A DNA stretch of 40,552 nucleotides. Origin: Phlyctochytrium arcticum. Its lineage: Eukaryota; Chytridiomycota; Chytridiomycetes; Chytridiales; Chytridiaceae. The stretch spans positions 1 through 40,552 of the forward strand of contig JAHLKI010000067.1 of assembly GCA_025602905.1 (NCBI GenBank). The letters run 5' to 3'. A program made the position numbers and the translations under genes. Under the pieces are notes generated by a model. It worked only from the letters and a program-made list of their open reading frames with translations. It searched no databases and was not told the origin of the DNA. Shown piece by piece: positions 1 to 40,440 of the stretch (positions are counted from its first letter, which is position 1; the number at the start of each line of letters is the position of its first letter).

Positions 1-923
1 TTGCGTTGATGATCGCCCTCGCAGCATATTTGTAAAACCGCGCTTGGTCGGGAATTTTGAAAGAAAATCATCGTCTTCCGACGTGACCGCGGCGTCCCCA
101 TCGAAAAGTTCTTGGTGGATCTGACCCCGCCGAGAATGACACTGTCATAGGCTTTCGAAAACTTTTAGTCACAAACGCAGGATCCGGGGCAATCAAATCG
201 AGCAATGAGTGGAAAGCGGTGCGTGACATGCGCATTTCATCCTCGAATTGACAGCTGGAGAAAATCTCTGCGCGAATGCTTGAGGACTGGAACTCGAGGT
301 GACCAATACCGAATGTTGGACAGTAAAGGAAAAGTACTGCATGTTCTCGGCCTCATATCGTCGATTGGCCCCCATTCCGGTTCCATAGGGAGTGAGAAGA
401 CTTCCCAGACAAGCTTGATCTGAGGGCGAGGCGGACAAGATCTTGCAGGTCTTACAGGTCTCGCTGACGCTTGAGATCTCGAGACATGTTTGTTCGTCGT
501 TCGGGTGGAGCAGGGTATGAGAAGTGGTTGGGATGGGGGTGAGATGTGCGTAAGATGGGTCTTTGAGATTCTGAGGCATCTCCAGATTCTCCAGATGCAT
601 CTCGCGAGGTCCCACCGGAGGTCCCACACATCGTTGCACAGTGTGTTACGGCCATAACGGCCATACTTTCCCAATGATGGCCCGCACCCAGGAGGCCTCC
701 GAAAAAGGACATTTGAGCTCAATCGGGTGGAAAAAAAAGCTCGAAAATGGGACTAGATGGTCCGTATATGGATTGTCAGGGGTGTCGTCGTGTCCGCTCT
801 GGCCTCTAGTGAGATGATTCACAGCCTTTCAACGCGGATTTCAACGCGTCTATTTTTCCCAGGTGAGTGATCAACGACTTTAGAGAGAAAGTGGGGTTGA
901 GGATGCTCTGCCTTGTGTGGAGG

Positions 924-7907: not shown

Positions 7908-8077
7908 AAAGGTCATTCCCTGCTGTGAGATCTGTACCAAGATCTGTACAATATCCAACGTGAGAGCTGTGTACGCACTACCCAACGTCACCTTTGAGTA
8001 AGAAGAGCCGCATACTGCTTTCTTGACGAGCAGAATATAACCTATCCTTTCTATATTTCTTTTTGCCGCAGACCGTC

Positions 8078-10388
8078 ATGATTGCTGGACCGTACAGTGA
8101 TCTTATTAAAGACAGAGAAGCTTCATCAGCGATTCAAAGCCTGCAACATACCGGGCACATTACTCAAGATGGAAATAGTAGTAGTACTCAAGGTGGAAAT
8201 AGTAGTACTACTATTGGGACCGCCCGGAGTGCCGATGCAGACGAACTGAAAGCGACAGCTTTTGACACCCTGGAGGAGCTCCTTACTCATGCAAAGGCGA
8301 ATGCGGAAGCAAACGGTTTTGCTCTGACCAGAAGGAGTAACAATGAAAGGTTCTATCTTCAATGCGGTCGTTGGGGAACGCTCCGCGAGAAAAAGGAGGC
8401 AACCATGGAGTCTGATTCAAAGACGCGCAATCGTTCAAGCTTACGATGCGGATGCCAATTTCAGCAATACGTTGCCCAAGACAAAAGAGGGTTAAAGGGC
8501 CCCAAAAATCTATGGTACTTGCACGAATCCTCCATTGAACACAACCACAACAATTCCGCACCTGTAGCCTATGCTGCTTATCGACAGTTCAGCAATGTAC
8601 ATAAGGAGTACCTAAGGCAGCACGCAAGAACAACGGTGAAAGAGCTGGTTTTGTCATTTCGTAAAACCTTTCCGGGTCATCCGGTAATCGATAAGGATAT
8701 TCGCAACTTCCGGACGCTTGAGCAAATGGAAGCTGCGAAGGGCAGATCTGCTATAGAGTGCCTCTTGGACGGACTTCACCAACCCGAATCTAGCTATATG
8801 GTTAGCTACCAAACCAGTGATGATGGTGCTCTTACCCACTTGTTTTTCGCTCATGAGAAGAGCGTTGAGAAATTAAGGCAATTTCCGGACGTACTAATAT
8901 TGGATTGTACTTATAAAACGAATAAGTGGCAAATGCCGCTTTTCAATATCCTCGGCATAGACAGCACTGGAATGTCCTTTACCGTAGGTTACGCGTTCTT
9001 ACGGGGTGAGACTGAGGAAGACTACACTTGGGCCTTACAGAACCTAGCTGGCCTTCTGGTAGGCAGCCGCGGGATTAAGACAGTGTTCGTGGACTGCAGC
9101 CGTGCTTTGATGAATTCCTTGGAGGCGGTCTTCCCAGGTATATTCCCAGCCGTTAATGAAAATGATTTGCGGTCTTTTAATTACTTTGCTCTAAGGTCTT
9201 AATGTTCTACTATGTATTTTTCATATCGTGGAAAACGTGGGAGCTCAACTGCAGCGTAAATATCCTCACATATCGGACGAAGACAAGCAAAACATTCTTA
9301 CTCTATGGAACGCTGTCGCCTACGCTGCATCCTTGGAAGATTATGCTGCAGCTGTTGGAGCCATCCGCAATGTACTCGATGACTACTACCCAGCGATGCG
9401 AATGTACCTAGAGGATACATGGCTTGTGCATCATAAACGGTTTGTAAAATTTTGGACAAGCCAGGTATTAACGCTAGGCATTAGAGCCACATCGCGAGTC
9501 GAAGGCTCGCATCGCTGCCTCAAAGATTGGCTTCACAATGGGGTGGGAGACTTTTTGACCGTATTTTCCGCCATGGATACGTTCATCAACAAGCAACTCA
9601 TTGACGTAGAGAACCAATACTTAAGAGAAAAAGACAGATTGTCCTCAAAGATGCGCGAAATCTTAGACGAGACACACCAAATTCGGGAGCATGTTTCCAA
9701 TGTGACCTTCAACGATCACCTCCACGCCAATATCGAGGAGGCTCGCAAGCAGGGTCCTCTGCAGCAATGCAATCACCAATACGCTGTCACAATGGGCTTA
9801 CCTTGTCCCGATCAAATTCGCTATGATTACAACCTTACGATTCCGCTGTCGGCTATTCATCCCGCATGGAGATATGATCCTTGCAATGCCAGTATTGATT
9901 CCTACTTTCTCCCCGACGCGACAACAGATTACCGTGCGCGTCTTGTCGCTGAGCTGGCAGCTGTTCAAAAGCGTTTCGATGCCCTACAAACAACATCTCA
10001 GCGACAGCGTGCGGTGCAACAGCTTAGCCAGGTGGGAGTGATCAGCGGTTCTGTCCTGAACCCGGTACGCACCAGGCGCGTCGATGTATTGGCGGAGCAT
10101 CGGGCAGCATCCAAACGTCAACGGATCGACACATCCACCCGTGCGGATCCTACTTTATCGGCGCATGTTGCGAGGGAGCAGCAGGAGCGTGCCGCCTCGT
10201 CCTCCGCCGCTAACAGGCAGAAGCCAAAGTGTAGCGTATGTCGGTCTGAAGACCACAAGGCAAACCGGTGCCCTGAAGCTCGCAGGAGAGAGGCCGCGCG
10301 TATTAATGCTGCCTGCGGAGTGAATGAACCGATTGAAGAGAAGATTGAAGAAGATATTAGTATCCTTATTGACATGTCACTTAGCTAG
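8078..10388 (+). CDS. MULE transposase with FAR1-like zinc region, DDE core and zinc knuckle
   Basis: This would catalyse cut-and-paste transposition of the surrounding element. Exon 1 is 8078-9137 and exon 2 is 9196-10388; the 58-nt intron has a GTATAT donor and CTAAG acceptor. Splicing in phase 1 restores the hallmark PGLNVLLCIFHIVENV (C..H) block, giving 750 aa. Features by residue: a FAR1/WRKY-GCM-like region with Cys and a closing EHNH at about 80-157; catalytic Asp at about 276 (LDCTYKTN); GETEEDYTWAL at about 310-320; second Asp at about 339 (VFVDCS); the C..H motif just after the splice junction; a SRVEGSH motif; and a CCHC zinc knuckle at about 699-712. The ATG at 8078 is the first one in frame. 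No stop or frameshift interrupts the spliced frame, so it is probably functional. Confidence 0.9.
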
Positions 10389-30829: not shown

Positions 30830-31505
30830 TTCAACTTTTCTTTTCCTCTTTTTGCTCCACTTGTCCATCTGGTCGACTTTGCTCATTCTTTTTACCACAA
30901 TCAATTCGTGCAATGATGGCAGTCCCTTATTTCTTTCTGTGATGTCCTATATATTTGTGTCTGCCATTAGCCTCCTTCCAAATGATGCAGAACCTGACCG
31001 CAGAAGCGTTTTGCAGAACATGGTTCAATCCTGGCTTAGTTTCCAAATCGGGGTAGCCCGTGACTGGTTTGTTGCCGGCTTGTTGCCGGTTCTATCCGTC
31101 TGCGCAGGCTTCTGAATCTGCGGGTGGGAATCACTTTGAGGGCAAATCTGCGAAGATGGCATGGCAGAATTGTCAGAACAAACATCTCCGAGGAGATCTC
31201 GCGTTATCCTTGTAAGATTGTTTAAAGAAATAAAGAAACGCTATGACATACACAAGATGCGACGGCATCAGATGAACATGAAATCTTTGTCAACCTCCCC
31301 ATAAGAGAGGAAGACGATGGAAATTTAAGAATTTTCGAGAAACTCTGTATCACATCTGATGACATCTGAAGTCCTTGGATGAGGGCTATATAAAGACAAA
31401 GGATGGTTGCTGATCCCCCCCAACAATTATCAAACAAAAATTACCCACTATTCCCATATCTCAACAACCTTCATCCCATCATTCCATCATCCCATCAATC
31501 CCATC
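30830..31505. other. Intergenic region with a promoter for the downstream Myb/SANT gene
   Basis: No gene recognised. The right part carries a clear TATA box (31387-31394) and a C/A-rich leader with CCCATCAT-type repeats before the start codon at 31506. Confidence 0.5.
31387..31394 (+). promoter_or_regulatory. TATA box
   Basis: TATATAAA about 112 nt upstream of the start codon at 31506, at a reasonable distance for a transcription start around 31420. Confidence 0.6.
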
Positions 31506-32015
31506 ATGCCCAACTCAACCAGCAACAGCCAAAGCCAAAGCAACAGCCAAAGCAATAGCAACCGACACAGCTGGACGCCTGAGGAGGAAGACGTCCTCAT
31601 TGAGTGGTTAAACGACGCAGGAAGTTACGACCAATTCCGTTGCGGCGGGTACAAAGACAAGTCGAACCGCAACCGCACCAGCAAAAAAACAAAAATCCAG
31701 TTATGCCAAGAATTGGCCGCCCTCCTTGCGGACAAGGGATTTCCTGGCCTCACCGCGCAGCAAGTCAAGAGCAAGCTTGAAGCTTACGAAGGTCAATACC
31801 GCAAAGCCCGTCAATATTTGGATAAGACGGGTTCAGGTATATCGGACGAAGACAAGTTGCAAACGCCCAACATCATGTCGAAAATCAAGAGGATGTTTCC
31901 GCAATGGGACCGCCTCGCCACCGTCCTGGGCGATAGAACATGCAACAACCCTGGTACCATCTCCCAAACCGATGACCAAACGACCGAACTTGAAGATCTC
32001 TGTGATAGTGCATGA
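31506..32015 (+). CDS. Myb/SANT-like DNA-binding protein ending inside a palindrome
   Basis: An intronless ORF of 169 aa. Residues 1-20 are Ser/Asn/Gln-rich. A Myb/SANT-like trihelix domain begins at HSWTPEEEDVLIEWL (about residue 20) and runs through QQVKSKLEAYEGQYRKARQY to about residue 120, a type found in fungal transposon-associated and regulatory proteins. The last five codons (LCDSA) and the TGA stop are supplied by the 62-bp palindrome at 32000-32061. A second, unrelated small ORF at 36213 ends in the same five residues in the same way. The gene may be a host gene truncated by element insertion, or a gene carried with the palindrome. The start is the ATG after the TATA box. Confidence 0.7.
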   Translation: MPNSTSNSQSQSNSQSNSNRHSWTPEEEDVLIEWLNDAGSYDQFRCGGYKDKSNRNRTSKKTKIQLCQELAALLADKGFPGLTAQQVKSKLEAYEGQYRKARQYLDKTGSGISDEDKLQTPNIMSKIKRMFPQWDRLATVLGDRTCNNPGTISQTDDQTTELEDLCDSA

Positions 32016-32061
32016 AAAATCCCATAGTATATACTATGGGATTTTTCATGCACTATCACAG
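32000..32061. repeat. Perfect 62-bp spacer-less palindrome, element copy A
   Basis: Two 31-nt arms meet at 32030/32031 with no spacer and no mismatch. Each arm runs CTGTGATAGTGCAT, then GAAAA, then ATCCCATAGTAT. It overlaps the end of the upstream ORF. To its right the sequence is homologous to the DNA right of the palindrome at 36362; to its left it is not. It is therefore a boundary of the repeated element. Roles could be a resolved hairpin telomere or concatemer junction, an element terminus, or a strong 3'-end hairpin. Confidence 0.95.
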
Positions 32062-32974: not shown

Positions 32975-33350
32975 AAAGGGGTGCAGTTTTGGGGTGCAGT
33001 TTTTTTTCCCTCCATGTATCAAGTGAGAGACAAGTTTTACTATCTATTTCCCTCCACTTTACATGTAGGGGTGCAAGGGGTGCAGTTTTCTTGAGGTAAA
33101 GTCCCTGGGGGAGGTAAGGTAGGTACTAGTTAGTAGTTCACACAATCTGTGAACATCTCACAACACTTTTAAAAATTCTATAAGAAAAATAAATATTGAA
33201 AAAAACTGCACCACTTGCACCCTCTTTTTCTACCTCCATAGAAACACTACATTACTTTACTAATCAATTTTTATTTTCCTACATGTATCGAGTAGGGTGC
33301 AGTTTTTTAAAACGCCTGCACCCTACCTGCACCCACTTGCACCCCCCTCT
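32975..33350. other. Origin-like iteron module, copy A (GGTGCA type)
   Basis: Forward iterons GGGGTGCAGTTTT (two near 32978-33000 and two near 33066-33088) lie left of a core of about 110 bp. Two reverse units lie right of the core (33206-33222), then one forward unit (33295) and three reverse units (33317-33345). The core (33095-33200) is AT-rich and has the stem-loop GTTCACACAATCTGTGAAC (33136-33154), a 7-bp stem with a 5-nt loop. Symmetric short binding sites around an AT-rich core are typical of replication origins served by SF3-helicase initiators. No function has been shown; this is inferred from architecture. Confidence 0.65.
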
Positions 33351-33369
33351 TCATCAATCCCCGACGCAC

Positions 33370-33471
33370 TCACTTCTTCAATTCTATCCCTACAAAGTAT
33401 CGAGCCGTCTTTGTTCGCTTCTCCGATACTACCGCTCGCAGTTCTTTGTAAAATGTAATTCGCTCACAAAG
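33370..33471 (-). pseudogene. C-terminal fragment of the D5-like helicase, copy A
   Basis: The last 34 codons match the end of the intact helicase gene at 37523-40006 with only a few substitutions (TFYKELRAVVSEKRTKTARY against the same stretch with TTRY), ending in TGA at 33370-33372. Homology stops abruptly near 33472. The rest of the gene is missing and a duplicated iteron pair follows. Confidence 0.85.
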
Positions 33472-33512
33472 AAAAGGGGTGCAGTTTTGGGGTGCAGTTT
33501 TTTTCCCCTCCA
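33472..33512 (+). repeat. Duplicated iteron pair at the helicase breakpoint
   Basis: About 41 bp containing two GGGGTGCAGTTTT units plus a T-run and CCCTCCA, nearly identical to about 32973-33014 in the origin-like module. It lies exactly between the truncated helicase and the transposase relic, so it marks a rearrangement junction. Confidence 0.8.
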
Positions 33513-34417
33513 CCGGACACTATTCCGATGGAAGGCTCAGTGGGAACAAACGCACGACTTGTTACCTCACCAGAAACAAGGACCGGACTTCAAACTTACC
33601 GAAGCAGAACAGCAACATCTTTTAAGCGAGTTTGAGTCAAATCCTGGTCTAACAAATCAACAAGCCGCTGCTCTATTTGATAACCGGATCAAGCCCAGGA
33701 CGATCTGAAACGAGCGAAATTCTCCCGCAAACTATTTAGTGACGAACAAGAAACTTATGCATCAGAAAGCGCTATCCAATTGGTCAAGGAATATTGCAGC
33801 ATGATGAAAAGTATCCCGACGTCCAAACGAGTCTACATGGACGAAAGCTTTATATACGATAATGAGGCGCCAAGAAGAGGACGCAGTTTACAGGGGCAGC
33901 CTATACCGAAAGTTCGCTCACGACATGGGAAAAGATGGACTGTTTATTTGGCAATTCGAGAAGATGGTTTGGTTCATCCTCCCATAATCGATACGGAGTC
34001 TGCTGATGATCTCAACTTTTATCACTATGTATGGCAAACGCTTGCACTTCCAAACGAAGTGGTGATTTGGGATCGCTTAGGCAAAGCTGGACGATGCACA
34101 AATCCATCGAAACAGCACTTCAATCCCGGTGTGAAACGACTTATCGAGCAGAAGCATTGCAAGGTTGTTTTTCTTCCGCCAAAAGGGAAACTCTTCAATC
34201 CAATTGAATTAGTCTTTGGGACCCTCAAGACGCATCTAAGTACACGACCAGTGCAGCGTGTGCAGAAAAAAGACCGCGAACCGAGGTTGAGTTGATCGAA
34301 GATTTGCAAATTGCAGCAGATAGAATTGGAAGGGAACATTTGAAGGGATTTTTTAGAGATAGGGGTACGGACAGAGCGTTTAGATTGGCGTATCCATATA
34401 TAGAACTCAATAACTAA
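33513..34417 (+). pseudogene. Decayed IS630/Tc1-type DDE transposase
   Basis: Three frames must be joined to follow the protein. The first runs to 33708 and starts inside the homeodomain-like HTH region (LFRWKAQWEQT..LTNQQAAALF), so the N-terminus is missing. The second covers about 33711-34270 with the DDE core: YMDESFIYDNEAPRRGRS, VVIWDRLGKAG and LPPKGKLFNPIELVFGTLK. The third is reached by a frame change at an A6 tract (about 34264-34270) and runs to the TAA at 34415-34417. Catalytic Asp, Asp and Glu are still visible. I find no clear terminal inverted repeats or TA duplication. It is inactive as it stands. Confidence 0.8.
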
Positions 34418-34443
34418 TAATTGAGTGGTTGTTCAAACGTTGT

Positions 34444-35907
34444 TTATTCGGTGATAGAATCTTTGACTGTATTAACTAGAACTATGTGCTGTTCAGGTGC
34501 AATGTCGCCAGCTGTTCTTTCAGGTGCTTCGTCTAGAACAATCTTCAAATCCTTGAGCATCGCCTCGGTTGCCCGCACGCTGTCGCAACCCGACGTAACC
34601 CGAACTAGGTCGAAAAGGATCGCTCGAAGCTCTCCCTGCGGCGTCCGGTACAGACCAACATGTGCCCACTTCAAGTCCCGGTGCCAGTATCCCTGTCCCG
34701 CCATCGATTTGATCGCAGCAACCGTAGCCGAACGGACCGCAGGATCGTCAGGTGGTTGAGAATCAATTGACACTGGCTGCACGTAAGGCATTACGAGAAA
34801 GTGATCTTCCCGGGACCGTCGAACGAAAGAAGAGGCATTCCAAAGCTTGTTCCAAAGATCTGACTCGAAGGTCGCTTCGTCTTTGGAGTTTGCGCCCTGG
34901 TACACCTTCACCACGCAACCGCGCCCGGCGCTGTTGCATGCCAGCCACGCATGCCCGTCCCCGCCACCGTGAAGGTCGGCAAGAAGATAGAATTCCTCTG
35001 AAGATGAGTGAGGAAGAACATTGAAATCCACGGGTGAAGTCGAAACTCTGGTGGACCACGTCACCTCTTGGGGCTTAAGGCATAACGCAAAGCGCTTGTT
35101 TAAGATCGTAGATAGATTCGGTGGCACAATGGCGGATGATGCCATCTTGCATACAGCGGTCGCGAGTACCAACGGAAGCCGTTTGTCGTCAAAGCGGAAA
35201 CTACCAGTGGTAGAAAGGGTTCGACCAGTAAAGGGGGGCGTGAAGGTCGCCTCTTTTGTGACTGCATGATCACTGCTTCGTACTCCCCAAGTTGGTATCT
35301 CCGGCAAAAAACCCCACATCTGAAATGCCTTCCCTTTTCCGTCGGAGATCAGTGGCGCACTGATAGGAGCCTCGGCAGCATCCGTGTCGCTGTCCGACAA
35401 CCAGCAGATACGCCAGTCTTCGTACGTTGTGAGAATGCCGTAAACGTGCTGCAACCCCTGAAACTGTTTGAGCGCCAGCATGTAGTCAAAAATTTGTCCC
35501 TGTACTTCATCGTTGTCCAGGACGTCGTTACCAGGCTTTTTCACTTCGATGACACCAATCGGGGCGTTGTTGGTGTTGAGCAAGTAAAAGAAATCAGCCT
35601 TCTGCGTGCCGAACATGGTCAGCTCTTCCTGGAGACGCACTTGCTTTTGAAACCCCAGAATCCTGAGCGTATCTCGAAGTACGGCACCAACGAGGCTCTT
35701 GATGTCTCCCTCGCTACCCCAGCTTATTCCGGTTTCCGTCCTCATCCATATCTCTGATGTTATGTCCGACAAGCTTTCACGATCCAACAATTGCAGATTC
35801 TTTCGAATGCTCGTCGCAGCCCCGTGACGCTCTTTGTTTCCTCGACTTGATGATATAGACACCCCGCGCGGTCCCAGGGCGGGCAGACTATCATTCAAAA
35901 ACGACAT
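34444..35907 (-). CDS. Crinkler-like protein: PD-(D/E)XK nuclease plus kinase-like domain
   Basis: A single intronless exon of 487 aa. Residues about 55-165 resemble the REase-type domain of Crinkler (CRN) and CR-toxin families, with Asp105 (KADFFYL) and Glu121-x-Lys123 (GVIEVKKPG). Residues about 300-470 form a kinase-like domain: GGGDGHAWLA (glycine loop region, 314-323), VVKVY with Lys334, LVMPYVQPV, WHRDLKWAHVGLY (HRD at 409-411) and LFDLVRV where the DFG motif is DLV. REase-kinase fusions are known in chytrids and oomycetes, where some act as effectors or in conflict between genetic elements. I see no LFLAK-type N-terminal header or signal peptide, so secretion is not supported. The gene lies between the two element copies. 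Confidence 0.8.
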   Translation of the reverse strand: MSFLNDSLPALGPRGVSISSSRGNKERHGAATSIRKNLQLLDRESLSDITSEIWMRTETGISWGSEGDIKSLVGAVLRDTLRILGFQKQVRLQEELTMFGTQKADFFYLLNTNNAPIGVIEVKKPGNDVLDNDEVQGQIFDYMLALKQFQGLQHVYGILTTYEDWRICWLSDSDTDAAEAPISAPLISDGKGKAFQMWGFLPEIPTWGVRSSDHAVTKEATFTPPFTGRTLSTTGSFRFDDKRLPLVLATAVCKMASSAIVPPNLSTILNKRFALCLKPQEVTWSTRVSTSPVDFNVLPHSSSEEFYLLADLHGGGDGHAWLACNSAGRGCVVKVYQGANSKDEATFESDLWNKLWNASSFVRRSREDHFLVMPYVQPVSIDSQPPDDPAVRSATVAAIKSMAGQGYWHRDLKWAHVGLYRTPQGELRAILFDLVRVTSGCDSVRATEAMLKDLKIVLDEAPERTAGDIAPEQHIVLVNTVKDSITE

Positions 35908-36212
35908 GCTCTCTTACTATACATTGGACGGAAATGTTTTGACGTCTGCTCTATGTTTCCGATCCTCCGTTTGACAATTCCTGTAGAAGGTCGGTGAAGT
36001 GAAAGTCCCGGGGTGAAAGTGCCCCCTTTGCACGTGATCATTTGACGTGTGTGACGCGACAACACGTAGCGTGACGTAAGCAAAGCATTTGCACTCGAAC
36101 CTCATTTATTTGATGGTTGCTAGGTACTAGTGACATTATCCATCGCCTCCACACTAAGAAATGCAAAGCATCTCAAATTTCCCTCGTATCTCCGCACCTT
36201 CGATTTCCAATC
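35908..36212. other. Divergent intergenic region
   Basis: About 305 bp between the Crinkler-like gene (leftward) and the 54-aa ORF (rightward). It contains CACGTG and several TGACGT/ACGTGT-like elements at about 36030-36080 that could act as bZIP-type sites for a shared promoter. This is inference from motifs only. Confidence 0.4.
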
Positions 36213-36377
36213 ATGTCCGACATTGTCTCCGCCTTACAACAGATCACAAACAACGAACCTACTCATCTTGCAAAGGAACAGCTAAAGAAGTATTTCGAAT
36301 CAAACAACGGTATGGACATCGATGCCAAGACCACCTACATCTACAAGTTGTTTGTTGAACTCTGTGATAGTGCATAA
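36213..36377 (+). CDS. Small ORF (54 aa) ending inside the second palindrome
   Basis: A hypothetical, mostly helical, charged protein with no recognised family. The start is the ATG at 36213 after a pyrimidine-rich leader. The last codons (ELCDSA, then TAA) fall inside the 64-bp palindrome, in the same reading frame as in the unrelated gene at 31506 (DLCDSA, then TGA). It may be a truncated host gene whose end was replaced by the element. Confidence 0.45.
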   Translation: MSDIVSALQQITNNEPTHLAKEQLKKYFESNNGMDIDAKTTYIYKLFVELCDSA

Positions 36378-36425
36378 CCAAATCCCATAGTATATACTAT
36401 GGGATTTGGTTATGCACTATCACAG
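36362..36425. repeat. Perfect 64-bp spacer-less palindrome, element copy B
   Basis: Two 32-nt arms with no spacer or mismatch: CTGTGATAGTGCAT, then AACCAA, then ATCCCATAGTAT. Compared with the palindrome at 32000-32061 the outer and inner blocks are identical, but the middle block differs (AACCAA against GAAAA), and the change is mirrored exactly in the other arm. Confidence 0.95.
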
Positions 36426-36490
36426 GGGAGATTCCAACTATGGGCCAACTATGGGCCAACTATGGGCCAACTATGTGCCAACTATGTGCC
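36426..36490 (+). repeat. CAACTATG tandem repeats, copy B
   Basis: About five units of CCAACTATGGG or CCAACTATGTG at a regular 11-nt spacing, homologous to the array at 32062-32130. Confidence 0.85.
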
Positions 36491-36716
36491 ACATTACACC
36501 GGACTTTACACCGGGCTTTACACCGTGTAATACGCTGTGTACGGGACTTCCAGAAAATTCACAAATTTCTTCTGTCAAAATTTGACACCTTACAAGTCGG
36601 CGAAGAATATTCTTCGCCCCATTTACAAGTCCCGTAATGAGCGTATTACACCGGTGTAATACGCTCATTACACCGTGTAATACGCTCATTACACCGTGTA
36701 ATACGCTCATTACGGG
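36490..36716. repeat. Amplified ATTACACC/GGTGTAAT block with long inverted repeat, copy B
   Basis: It includes a perfect 20-bp palindrome GGCGAAGAATATTCTTCGCC (36599-36618). It also has an inverted repeat with exact 21-nt arms at 36631-36651 and 36696-36716. Between and within the arms ATTACACCG(G)TGTAAT plus ACGCTC is repeated three times. Copy A has only the two-unit version, so the block was amplified and inverted in copy B. Confidence 0.88.
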
Positions 36717-37104
36717 ACTTCCGTCAATTTATCACGATTTTAATTGTTGCAATTTGAAAATATTGTTATTACAATTCCATTATCTTTACTTTTATCCCAA
36801 CATTCTCGCTACATCCATCATCGGGTCGCCGAAGTATTTTCACATCTCCCCGCTACATGTACAAATATTTGTACCGTGTTGATGCTTCCCTGAATCCCTC
36901 GGAATGTTCCCAGTCTATCAATTCTTCTCAATAAATGTCGCTTCCATTCTTCTCCTGCGATGATTGATATTTTCGAATGATTTCTCCGGTGTGGAGCGGC
37001 CCCTTTACGGGACTTTCAAACCTTTATAACATTCTCTGCTATCGATATCATATCGATGTCATATCGATATCATTCCGAATTCTTTTCTGGATAAGACATA
37101 TCGA

Positions 37105-37505
37105 TATCATCCCAAAAAAAGGTGACACTTTTGGTGACACTTTTGGTGACAGTTTTTTTTACTCCACGTCTCGAGTGAGAGACACTTTTCATTATATATT
37201 TCCCTCCATTTTACATGTAGGTGACAGAGATGACAGTTTTTTTGAGGTAAAGTCCCTGGGGATATAGTTTTTAGACTAGTGATTAGTTGTTCACACGTTC
37301 TGTGAACTTCTGCTCACTCATAAAAATTCTATACAAAAAATAAACTTACAAAAAAACTGTCATTTCTGTCACCCTTTTTTTCCCTTCATAGAAACACTAC
37401 ACAACTTTATTAATAAATTTTTATTTTCCTACATGTATCGAGTGGTGACAGTTTTTTTTTTACCTGTCACCAAACTGTCACCTTTTCCAAAAAACTGTCA
37501 CCCCT
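37105..37505. other. Origin-like iteron module, copy B (GGTGACA type)
   Basis: Architecture as in copy A: three forward units near 37111-37150, two forward near 37217-37238, core, two reverse near 37355-37373, one forward near 37445 and three reverse near 37465-37503. The iteron core is GGTGACAGTTTT or GGTGACACTTTT, not GGTGCA. The core stem-loop GTTCACACGTTCTGTGAAC (37289-37307) keeps the copy-A stem and changes the loop. The module lies just downstream of the stop codon of the SF3 helicase gene, as expected for an origin and its initiator. Confidence 0.68.
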
Positions 37506-37522: not shown

Positions 37523-40006
37523 TCACTCATTCTTCCATTCTATCCCTACAAAGTATCGAGTCGTCTTTGTTCGTTTCTCCGATACTACCGCTCTCAGTTC
37601 TTTGTAAAATGTGTTTCGCTCACAAAGAGTTGTGGATCCAACATTATCGGCCAGATACTTATCGTAGATTGCGGTTCTTTCAATTTTGTCTTCGGGGTTG
37701 TTGGTCAATTTATAAGTCATTTTGAACCATTTCGCAACGGTTAGAGAATTTACCAGATTCTTTTTAGTATACTCATTGACCTCCTCTGGAACCTTTATCG
37801 ATAAATCCAAAGTTCCATCCTTCTTTACAAACTTTGCTTTAAAGTATTGCAGCAATATGAGAATAAATGTGTCTCGATATTCTGGAGAGGATAAAAGTCT
37901 TTTAAGGTTTGGATCAACTTGACGAACAATTTGTTCATCTTCACCATCATCCATTTGGACGGCCTCTTCTTCATCCTCTTCTTCATCATTACATTCTGCA
38001 AATGTAACGGTGTAAGGGATCATTTTCGCCGAAAGAGCAATAGCAGTATCGATACGGTCGAATTTTGGATCTTCGTTTGTTTGAATATGGAGTGCCCCAG
38101 TCATAGGGAACGTAAGAGGTTTGCCGTGAAGTGTCCGAACCGGATAAGGGTCATTTCCTCGAATGATTTTAATTTCATCAGAAGCAAAGGATTGACCAAC
38201 TTGAGGCTCAGAAGTTGCGAGATATCTCTTACCGAAACAGTTGAACATTTGCGCATTTGGGGCATCACGTTGACCTTTGCTGCGAGTAGTAATATTTTCA
38301 GGTTTGATAAAGTAGAAATAAGTCCCAAAAGTAGATGTAATTAGCGCGGTTTCAGCACCCTTCCCGTTACGACCGCCTCCTTTTTGTACGTAAAAGGACT
38401 CCTCTACAACCTTTCCATATAAACATCGTGCAAGTTGAGCGATACGATAGTCACGTATATTATCGCATGGAAAAATGCTTACAATGAATGAGGCGATTTC
38501 CTCTTTAATGTCCGCATCTACTCCATCGCTAGGGAAAGGATACCCACAAGTGTGCAAGATGTAATCTTTGGCTTGAAAAGGACGAAACTCACCCGTGGTA
38601 AGGTCGTAAACGCCATCGGTGAATGCGAACAGATGAGGATTTGAAAGAAAGAGCCCGATACAATTGTCGTTTTTAACAGAGAGTCTATCGACATTTTTGG
38701 CCACATTCCCGGAAAAATCATTCATTTCGATCGTACGTTGAAATTGTTTAAACACATCTTTAAGGTCGTTGACATTCTGCATATCGTCATCTGCCTCTTG
38801 GATAAGAGATTTAAAGGAGGACACCAGAGTTTCGGCAACTTGAATATTTAAGTCACTTGATCCAATAGTGTCATACTCGCGCCAGATATTGTCTTTCCCG
38901 AGGATATAGAGAAAACCGCTTGTATGTTTCATGATACTATCGGCACTTTGCTCTTCAATAAACCATTTTGCGGCGTTGAGATGTGTTGGAGCATAAAGTC
39001 GCTTGAAATCGAAATATTTCCATTTGCCAGATGGTAAGTCCCGCAACGCTTCGAAATCAAGGTCATCTTTTTGTTTTTTCTTGGGTGGCTCATCATCATC
39101 ATCCTCCTCATCATCATCTTCCTCCAAAGGGTCATACTTCAAACGGAATTTCTCCAAAAACGCATCAGACACAAGGAGTGGTTTTTCCGCCAGTTTAATA
39201 TGAATACCACATTCGTCAAAGACGAATTGTGAACATTCATCAAGTAACTCTTGAGTCATATCGTGACCCTCTCTTTTCCTAATCATTCCACCATCAAAGA
39301 TTAGAGCATCGACCGACCACCCCCTATCGGTAAAGAATCGATCCATTAAAAGTGTCACTTTCTTTTCGAGGGTTTGGGTAACTTGTGCGATAAAACTACC
39401 TTCGCGATTACCCTTAATAGTAGCGTCCCGGGATGTTCTGACTTTTTCCCAAATGTCGGGATACTCGTTTTTTAGAATGGGGCAAAGTGTGGTGTAAACG
39501 GCCGAGTGTATTTCAGAAAAGAAAGGGTCACTGATTTTACGCCCAGCAAAAAGCATCATGGAAACGACCTCTTGTTTGTCAATTTTTTTTTCTGTCAAGA
39601 TAGTAGAGCGATTTTCGACATAGTGAGTTAGAGCATCACAAGTGATAGAATGCCTTTTAAAGAGATGTGCAATTAAAGTAAATATAGAGTTTACTTGGTC
39701 GATATCATGATACCGTCCTGCTGCTAGATACTGTCTGAAATGATTATCTCTTGCCTCGAGATTCTGAAGAGACAGTCCTCTAGCCCACAATCTGCCAATT
39801 TGTTCTAGGGCGCTTTTCTCTGAATAAGCATATTCAGTGCGATAAAGATTTTTTCCGACTTTGCGATACTTAAGAGCACGCAAACGGGTCTTCATTTTGT
39901 GTAAAACGAATGGACTCTGAAGACAATATTTGATATGAGTGTCATTGATATATTCGAACTTTTCGAGTGCGGTATCGCTTGATAATTTTGGACAAAAGTC
40001 AGACAT
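37523..40006 (-). CDS. D5-like superfamily 3 helicase, primase-helicase type
   Basis: A replicative helicase of the kind encoded by large DNA viruses, virophage-like elements and some plasmids. One uninterrupted exon of 827 aa; AT-rich, unlike the intron-containing host genes. The N-terminal half (1-290) has DALIFDGGMIRKREG (234-248), possibly belonging to a primase-type domain; I cannot assign it firmly. An acidic tract followed by PPKKKQK (about 295-313) looks like a nuclear localisation signal. The helicase core has FTDGVYDLTTGEFRP (462-476), Walker A GGGRNGKGA (543-551), Walker B region KRYLATSEPQ (593-602), motif C ALHIQTNEDPKFDRID (638-653) and a following IPY segment. A second acidic insertion (672-690) follows. 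The C-terminus (NTFYKELRAVVSEKR) is a winged-helix-like tail conserved in the copy-A fragment. The intact frame suggests recent acquisition or continued use. Confidence 0.85.
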   Translation of the reverse strand: MSDFCPKLSSDTALEKFEYINDTHIKYCLQSPFVLHKMKTRLRALKYRKVGKNLYRTEYAYSEKSALEQIGRLWARGLSLQNLEARDNHFRQYLAAGRYHDIDQVNSIFTLIAHLFKRHSITCDALTHYVENRSTILTEKKIDKQEVVSMMLFAGRKISDPFFSEIHSAVYTTLCPILKNEYPDIWEKVRTSRDATIKGNREGSFIAQVTQTLEKKVTLLMDRFFTDRGWSVDALIFDGGMIRKREGHDMTQELLDECSQFVFDECGIHIKLAEKPLLVSDAFLEKFRLKYDPLEEDDDEEDDDDEPPKKKQKDDLDFEALRDLPSGKWKYFDFKRLYAPTHLNAAKWFIEEQSADSIMKHTSGFLYILGKDNIWREYDTIGSSDLNIQVAETLVSSFKSLIQEADDDMQNVNDLKDVFKQFQRTIEMNDFSGNVAKNVDRLSVKNDNCIGLFLSNPHLFAFTDGVYDLTTGEFRPFQAKDYILHTCGYPFPSDGVDADIKEEIASFIVSIFPCDNIRDYRIAQLARCLYGKVVEESFYVQKGGGRNGKGAETALITSTFGTYFYFIKPENITTRSKGQRDAPNAQMFNCFGKRYLATSEPQVGQSFASDEIKIIRGNDPYPVRTLHGKPLTFPMTGALHIQTNEDPKFDRIDTAIALSAKMIPYTVTFAECNDEEEDEEEAVQMDDGEDEQIVRQVDPNLKRLLSSPEYRDTFILILLQYFKAKFVKKDGTLDLSIKVPEEVNEYTKKNLVNSLTVAKWFKMTYKLTNNPEDKIERTAIYDKYLADNVGSTTLCERNTFYKELRAVVSEKRTKTTRYFVGIEWKNE

Positions 40007-40242: not shown

Positions 40243-40440
40243 ATGACTGGGTCAAAAAGCATCTATACAGCAGTTGTAACTTTCCTGGGAGAAGAACGAA
40301 CGGTTGAAGCACGGAGCATTCGACAATTGGCACGAAAACTCGGCGTATCTCATCCGACAATTCATAAAATGCTCAACAATCGCGAAACTACTCGGATGAA
40401 GGCTGTAATCACAGAAAGACCAAAGAATACAGAAAAGTGA
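40243..40440 (+). CDS. Small helix-turn-helix protein (65 aa)
   Basis: ATG at 40243, TGA at 40438-40440. Residues about 25-45 (SIRQLARKLGVSHPTIHKML) form a classical HTH resembling the N-terminal HTH of resolvases, transposases or phage-type regulators. The rest is short, basic and unlike a full transposase. It is divergent from the helicase and probably a regulator or accessory DNA-binding protein of the element. A hairpin-forming inverted repeat follows 25 nt after the stop. Confidence 0.65.
   Translation: MTGSKSIYTAVVTFLGEERTVEARSIRQLARKLGVSHPTIHKMLNNRETTRMKAVITERPKNTEK

What the first reader, a model, noticed from the sequence alone, without database searches (positions are those of the whole stretch)
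32975..37505. Two origin-like modules with identical architecture but switched iteron sequence
The modules at 32975-33350 and 37105-37505 align end to end. Both have forward iterons, an AT-rich core with a conserved GTTCACA/TGTGAAC stem-loop, two reverse iterons, one forward and three reverse. At every one of about ten homologous iteron positions copy A has GGTGCA and copy B has GGTGACA, while the surrounding DNA diverged less specifically. Random drift would not change all sites in the same way. The pattern fits a change in the DNA-binding specificity of the cognate initiator, with all sites following, as iteron plasmids and viruses do to become independent of each other. The nearby SF3 helicase is a natural partner. 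I know of no described fungal element with this design.
Basis: partly seen in the sequence, partly recalled or inferred. Interest (0 to 1): 0.9.

Follow-up and report, generated by a model that had tools for sequence, protein, structure and literature searches.

The report
Chytrid virus origins with switching repeats
Viruses integrated in a chytrid fungus's genome carry look-alike replication-origin modules whose repeated words change together and, in two of three comparisons, along with a small loop of the virus's replication protein that probably touches DNA, so how such viruses recognise their origins becomes directly testable.

Summary
Modules A and B share one plan: ten GGTGCA sites in A; nine GGTGACA plus two degenerate inner sites in B. 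The genome (Phlyctochytrium arcticum by protein match) holds at least 36 such modules, partial ones included, in six iteron types. They are not a plain fungal element: modules lie near the ends of integrated polinton-like (MELD) viruses, directly 3' of a gene for an A-family-polymerase/D5-helicase fusion whose C-terminus models as a winged helix. Between T1 and T3 modules, iterons differ at 46% of positions against 10% outside. In the closest T1/T3 gene pair the protein changes cluster in the wing (residues 809-816) although the gene body groups these two copies together; a T4/T5 pair repeats this; T1/T1b does not. A second virus clade has its own clean switch. Best reading: iteron origin plus recognition wing form a linked, exchangeable specificity cassette with the layout of SaPI/PICI origins. 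Limits: no binding or replication data; module A's type (T2) has no intact helicase and its remnants conflict; remnants of other types break the rule in places; T3 modules keep one odd outer site; for A versus B alone substitutions are not enriched in iterons.

The parts
32001..32060 (.). Terminal palindrome at the left end of element A, 60 bp, perfect
32978..33343 (+). Module A, type T2: forward sites 32980, 32993, 33070, 33079, 33296; reverse 33207, 33216, 33317, 33328, 33338; AT-rich core about 33095-33200
33136..33154 (+). Core stem-loop of module A
33376..33480 (-). Remnant of a helicase C-terminus beside module A (wing like that of T1b copies)
33469..33512 (+). Truncated start of a second T2 module (sites 33478, 33491)
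36363..36424 (.). Terminal palindrome at the left end of element B, 62 bp, perfect
37119..37502 (+). Module B, type T1: forward sites 37121, 37133, 37145, 37220, (37229), 37444; reverse (37358), 37367, 37465, 37476, 37496; AT-rich core about 37245-37350
37289..37307 (+). Core stem-loop of module B
37523..40006 (-). Replication protein, 827 aa: A-family-polymerase-like N-terminus, D5-type SF3 helicase, C-terminal winged helix
37556..37588 (-). Codons of the wing, residues 807-817
   Evidence: coordinates computed from 37526-40006
40243..40440 (+). Small HTH-like ORF of element B, divergent from the helicase gene

Best explanation
Modules A and B are replication-origin modules in the end regions of two integrated polinton-like viruses of a chytrid fungus. 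The module lies directly 3' of the viral replication gene, whose protein joins an A-family-like polymerase to a D5-type SF3 helicase and ends in a winged helix. Most likely this C-terminal domain binds the iterons on both sides of the AT-rich stem-loop core, loads helicase rings there and melts the core. Recognition is set partly by the wing. The wing codons lie a few dozen bases from the iterons, so recombination or short-tract conversion can move wing and iterons together; repeated exchange has given co-resident viruses distinct iteron types, which would make their replicons independent. Shown by sequence: anatomy, location, type uniformity within limits, divergence between types, wing clustering in two of three contrasts, provirus gene content. 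Inferred: winged-helix contact with iterons, ring loading, melting, independence and selection.
For: Position directly after the stop codon and iteron arrays far above shuffles in 7 of 8 loci tested. D5/E5 fold over about 335-827 and A-family polymerase fold over about 3-280; winged helix with recognition helix 797-807 and wing strands 810-812, 817-824. C1_1529k (T1) versus C5 (T3): 6 of 669 nt differ upstream, then 14 of 23 nt in the wing, then 0 of the next 47, then all iterons but the outermost. Five of 13 T1-fixed, T3-different residues lie in 809-816, a cluster reached in 0 of 20,000 random draws. C3 (T5) versus C6 (T4): 5 of 44 differences in 807-817; four T1/T1 pairs have 0 there. Both T4 genes with a readable end share one wing; C32_11k shares the T3 wing with C5. 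Gene body groups C1_1529k with C5 at 43 sites against 15. Five of six facing module pairs share a type. Virus genes lie between facing modules. Independent switch in a second clade, C34 versus C13. Precedent: SaPI Rep C-terminus and downstream iterons (PMC7581432 passages); PICI iterons around an AT-rich region (PMC6092414 passages).
Against: No binding or replication experiment. T1 versus T1b shows no wing clustering (1 of 51 differences in 807-817). T2, the type of module A, has no intact helicase, and its two remnants carry different wings. Remnants break the rule: C3_239.4k is a T5 module beside a T4-like wing; C17_5.0k (T3) and C1_1550k and C42_153k (T5) share one wing. T3 modules keep one GGTGACA-like outer site. 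Two T3 modules differ inside iterons as much as outside, 12/80 versus 33/307. The window 807-817 was chosen after seeing the alignment, so its P values are optimistic. The wing tract of C5 also carries synonymous changes (alignment), which points to import by recombination rather than stepwise adaptation.
Confidence: 0.68

Rival explanations
1. Passive cassette: module and gene end are simply neighbours, and recombination at conserved blocks near the virus ends moves both; wing and iterons need not match functionally.
For: The wing lies within about 100 bp of the module. Synonymous changes cluster in the C5 wing as well (alignment). Remnants with mismatched wings exist.
Against: Between wing and module 47 nt are unchanged in C1_1529k/C5, so a single plain tract does not explain it. 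The C3/C6 wing differences are amino-acid changing in five neighbouring codons. Full-length genes keep type and wing together.
Confidence: 0.14
2. The iterons are bound by another factor, such as the small HTH protein or a host protein, and serve transcription, silencing, packaging or end maintenance rather than initiation.
For: The modules lie near virus ends, and a small HTH ORF lies next to the helicase in several copies.
Against: The HTH protein hardly differs between T1 and T3 copies and between T4 and T5 copies. The arrays lie 3' of helicase genes in distant clades too.
Confidence: 0.13
3. Neutral homogenisation: iterons within a module are kept alike by conversion or slippage, like a satellite, without an initiator.
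For: Forward arrays do expand in tandem: 28 copies of GGTGACACTTTT in L039.
Against: Sites in both orientations and in separate blocks change together while the DNA between them still aligns. A versus C17_5.5k shows 0/70 changes inside and 38/321 outside. The protein wing changes as well in two contrasts.
Confidence: 0.05

Closest known systems
SaPI / PICI origins (Rep helicase plus iteron ori)
   Same: Origin directly 3' of the D5-family or related helicase gene, two iteron sets around an AT-rich region, recognition by the Rep C-terminus (PMC7581432 and PMC6092414 passages); a SaPI5 primase-helicase is among the fold matches.
   Different: Bacterial phage satellites; here eukaryotic viruses, a polymerase-helicase fusion, a core stem-loop and placement near virus ends.
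Phage P4 alpha protein and plasmid pRN1 replicons
   Same: P4 alpha binds origin repeats with a winged helix; pRN1 needs a stem-loop 3' of its replication gene, kept in structure but not in sequence (PMC4234260 passages).
   Different: P4 and pRN1 use primases rather than an A-family-like polymerase; pRN1 has no iterons.
Polinton-like / MELD viruses
   Same: Capsid ('hexon' of a Powellomyces chytrid MELD virus, 64% identical), A32-type ATPase, rve integrase, primase-helicase type protein, 15-50 kb, facing ends.
   Different: No iteron origin of such viruses turned up in my paper searches.
Geminivirus iterons and Rep
   Same: Conserved positions and pattern but diverse iteron sequences among close relatives, cognate Rep (PMC12548392 abstract).
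   Different: Circular ssDNA with a different Rep; that paper also reports that iteron identity was not essential for replication.

Membership tests
Polinton-like (MELD) virus | Double jelly-roll major capsid protein | tested here: inconclusive
   Intact 416-417 aa ORFs match a protein named hexon of a chytrid MELD virus and Capsid_N weakly (E 0.002, below the curated cut-off); the fold model failed (pLDDT 33.7)
Polinton-like (MELD) virus | A32-type packaging ATPase | tested here: met
   Pox_A32 39.5 bits against a cut-off of 22.8
Polinton-like (MELD) virus | Integrase and target-site duplication | tested here: met
   rve plus chromodomain; CAGAA at both ends of C4:1109k-1157k, and 4 of 5 bases alike at C4:901k-924k
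Polinton-like (MELD) virus | The window's own elements A and B carry these genes | tested here: inconclusive
   A is truncated and B runs off the contig after the helicase and HTH ORFs; membership rests on related copies such as C4:901k-924k
SaPI/PICI-type iteron origin (works like) | Two iteron sets around an AT-rich region, immediately 3' of the initiator gene | tested here: met
SaPI/PICI-type iteron origin (works like) | Initiator C-terminus binds iterons | not testable with these tools
   only wing/iteron correlation
SaPI/PICI (as a member) | Bacterial satellite induced by a helper phage | tested here: not met
   The host is a fungus and related copies encode capsid and ATPase
D5-type SF3 primase-helicase | D5_N domain and D5/E5 fold to the C-terminus | tested here: met
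TV-Pol-type polymerase-helicase fusion (name recalled) | A-family polymerase fold fused to the N-terminal side of the helicase | tested here: met

The most novel reading that the evidence does not exclude
Eukaryotic integrated viruses keep origin specificity as a swappable cassette, wing codons plus iterons, near their ends. Repeated cassette exchange has split dozens of co-resident proviruses in one fungus into several mutually independent replication types, at least twice independently, with an origin layout otherwise known from bacterial phage satellites.
Probability: 0.42. Interest if true: 0.87.

Novelty: new variant of a known kind. Interest (0 to 1): 0.79.

Why it matters
My paper searches found no description of how polinton-like viruses recognise an origin (open-licence papers only). 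Here the candidate origin, its likely initiator and a natural series of six iteron types sit in one genome, so the recognition code can be tested by simple binding assays. [quoted passage not shown] finding it in eukaryotic viruses would suggest that D5-type helicases keep one old way of starting replication. Type switching would also explain how many related viruses can share one host without cross-talk.

Tried and rejected
Plain fungal transposon: rejected, because facing module pairs enclose virus genes. SANT-like ORF (31407-32015) as iteron binder: rejected; element A begins at 32001 inside it, and the tail it shares with the ORF before element B comes from the element's terminal sequence. 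Small HTH protein as type determinant: disfavoured. Related free viruses: three scans of viral contigs found none that passed; records near the window's genome may be left out of that tool. Capsid fold: model too poor; one capsid piece had no PDB sequence match. C1_1529k and C1_1550k face each other but differ in type and terminal sequence, so I do not count them as one provirus. Iterons 3' of C81's helicase: best 7-mer 3 copies, reached in 72 of 300 shuffles: not supported. Frames shown for distant helicases were naive; replace them for C34, C13, C44 and C81; repeats seen by eye near C8, C23 and C4:896k were not tested. The P4 origin-binding domain is not in the fold list shown, which proves nothing. 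Rows left out: one search aligned 31 of 36 modules (five partial ones dropped); the C22 row lacks its first part through my trimming.

Papers: ten searches. Listings showed no paper on iteron origins in polinton-like viruses or on such viruses in Phlyctochytrium. Seen: PMC4234260, PMC7581432, PMC6092414, PMC10120064, PMC11071308 and PMC10328495 as passages; PMC12548392 as abstract and outline; the rest as listings. PMC10120064 left Fungi out of its survey (passage).

Full report
WHERE IT IS. The window is the whole contig C67 (40,552 bases) of a 31.5-Mb, 91-contig genome. The closest database proteins of the helicase are annotated as Phlyctochytrium arcticum and lie on contigs whose lengths equal C1, C6, C24 and C25; this is a chytrid. 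Element A begins at 32001 inside a SANT-like ORF; element B begins at 36363 inside another ORF and runs off the contig. From its terminus to the contig end B differs from a copy on C43 at 1 of 4,190 positions, while the outside flanks differ: two recent insertions.

THE OBSERVATION. Two genome searches found more copies (counts are lower bounds). I extracted 36 modules, partial ones included. By iteron they fall into six types (my naming): T1 GGTGACA[C/G]TTTT (10 modules), T1b GGTGACAGACTT (2), T2 GGGTGCAG (3, with module A), T3 TAGGGCAG (4), T4 GGGGGGCAG (4), T5 GTGACA with a free base before it (13). T1, T1b and T5 share GTGACA, so the truly distinct cores are four. All cores end in CA; the first half varies. 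T2 (3 of 3) and T4 (4 of 4) modules hold only their own core. T1 modules carry one GATGACA inner site in 10 of 10. T3 modules keep GGTGACA at the outer left end in 3 of 4; the fourth has GGTTACA there. T5 mixes GGTGACA and other NGTGACA in 13 of 13.

RATES (14 pairs chosen by me). Six same-type pairs, inside versus outside iterons: C67B/C4_901k 1/63, 6/328; C16/C1_1529k 0/77, 6/324; C3_276.2k/C25 5/70, 24/333; C6/C45 0/63, 5/345; A/C17_5.5k 0/70, 38/321 (p=6e-4); C5/C17_5.0k 12/80, 33/307. Only the T2 pair shows iterons frozen while the flanks drift; the T3 pair does not; the rest are too close to tell. Eight pairs of differing type: T1/T3 41/90, 32/307; T4/T5 26/70, 52/319 and 24/63, 58/321; T2/T3 26/77, 56/304; T1/T2 17/76, 50/300 and 16/67, 47/318 (p=0.24, 0.07); T2/T1b 10/63, 55/314; T1/T1b 4/80, 30/304. 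So excess change inside iterons is clear for T3 and T4, and absent by substitutions where the change is indel-like (T2) or the core is shared (T1b).

STEM-LOOP AND ENDS. The core hairpin survives in different letters, such as GTTCACA/TGTGAAC, AAGTAGTTCA/TGAACTACTT and GAAGAATA/TATTCTTT. Thirty of 36 modules have a stem of at least 7 pairs (G-T allowed); three reach only 6, and three partial ones gave none. Of 12 element ends with both terminal motifs in my loci, 10 carry a palindrome with no or one mismatched pair, 60-84 bp long, in four sequences; two are imperfect.

WHAT THE CARRIER IS. Six module pairs face each other across 21-48 kb; five agree in type. C4:901k-924k encodes an integrase with rve core and chromodomain, an A32-type packaging ATPase, an HNH-AP2 protein, a response-regulator domain, repetitive fibre-like proteins (my reading) and a capsid gene in two pieces. 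A genome search with one capsid piece gave 53 rows, 26 in open frames of 400 aa or more; four of the five same-type pairs enclose one, C42 does not. In two capsid loci read, the integrase lies next to the capsid ORF. The capsid matches 'hexon [Powellomyces chytrid fungus MELD virus 5]' at 64%. A helicase relative and a capsid relative both lie on database contigs of 13,883 bp, presumably one contig. The T4 pair's capsid is only 30% like the T1 capsid, the T5 pair's 72%, though their helicases are 82-84% like T1: replication and capsid genes seem to be reshuffled.

WING AND ITERONS. Ten open helicase frames were aligned, one trimmed. C1_1529k (T1) and C5 (T3) differ at 6 of 669 nt over columns 1800-2520, at 14 of 23 nt in the wing, at 0 of the next 47, and then at all iterons but the outermost. 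Of 38 residue differences five lie in 807-817 (P=5e-5). Of 13 sites fixed in six T1 rows and different in T3, five lie in 809-816; 0 of 20,000 random draws were as clustered. The gene body groups C1_1529k with C5 at 43 sites; 15 sites, five of them in the wing, group it with C67B. C3 (T5) and C6 (T4) differ at 44 sites, five in 807-817; C45 (T4) has the C6 wing. Four T1/T1 pairs have none there. T1/T1b has one there and four or five in 795-827, two at the start of the recognition helix: no clustering in the wing. The window 807-817 was set after seeing the alignment. In the genome at large 22 of 36 modules had a readable C-terminus beside them. All nine T1 ones carry TTRYFVGIEWK; C32_11k matches C5 (T3). 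Against the rule: C3_239.4k, a T5 module, lies beside a T4-like wing; C17_5.0k (T3) and C1_1550k and C42_153k (T5) share one wing; the two T2 remnants differ, module A's being T1b-like. These are broken remnants, not genes, but the correlation is good only for whole or nearly whole genes.

GENERALITY. Distant helicases C34 and C13 (73% alike) have ten and eleven copies of their own 7-mers within 420 bp of the stop, and C44 seven (0 of 300 shuffles each); C81 has no supported array. C34 and C13 sites differ as ATCTGTGTA versus ATCTGTACA. Their last residues are also less alike than the helicase core, but I made no test.

MECHANISM. [quoted passage not shown] PICI origins have two iteron sets around an AT-rich region (PMC6092414 passages); P4 alpha binds origin repeats with a winged helix, and pRN1 needs a stem-loop 3' of its replication gene (PMC4234260 passages). 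The chytrid virus modules combine these features. I infer binding by the winged helix, ring loading, core melting, and type switching by exchange of a linked wing-plus-iteron cassette. None of this is shown by experiment.

VERDICT. The carrier is a known kind; the origin logic is a new variant of a known kind.

Noticed in passing
window 32001-32060 and 36363-36424; ends in L003, L011, L015, L029: Element ends carry perfect or near-perfect palindromes of 60-84 bp in four different sequences that begin TGTGATAGTGCA; they may be footprints of hairpin ends.
   Followed up: partly
C17:5.0-5.9k, C17:61.8-62.6k, C3:239k and 276k, C7:651k, C2:3k: Tandem modules, in C17 of two different types separated by a helicase C-terminal remnant of about 100 bp.
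   Followed up: partly
L039 (C44:79500-80700): A run of 28 copies of the 12-bp iteron unit GGTGACACTTTT.
   Followed up: no
helicase copies on C67, C43, C16, C22, C17:709k: These copies lie within about 0.5-3.5 kb of a contig end with the gene start facing that end; subtelomeric position or assembly breaks at repeats.
   Followed up: no
L020 3135-4027 and L023: T4 copies carry an insert of about 830 bp with a small ORF between the helicase and the module, flanked by a repeat of the gene end.
   Followed up: no
window 34444-35907 (-): ORF of 487 aa with DUF5898 and a weak HSDR_N-like stretch between elements A and B.
   Followed up: no
window 8063-10388 and 33780-34295: A MULE-type transposase ORF with a neighbouring ORF, and a DDE_3 transposase fragment downstream of element A.
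   Followed up: no
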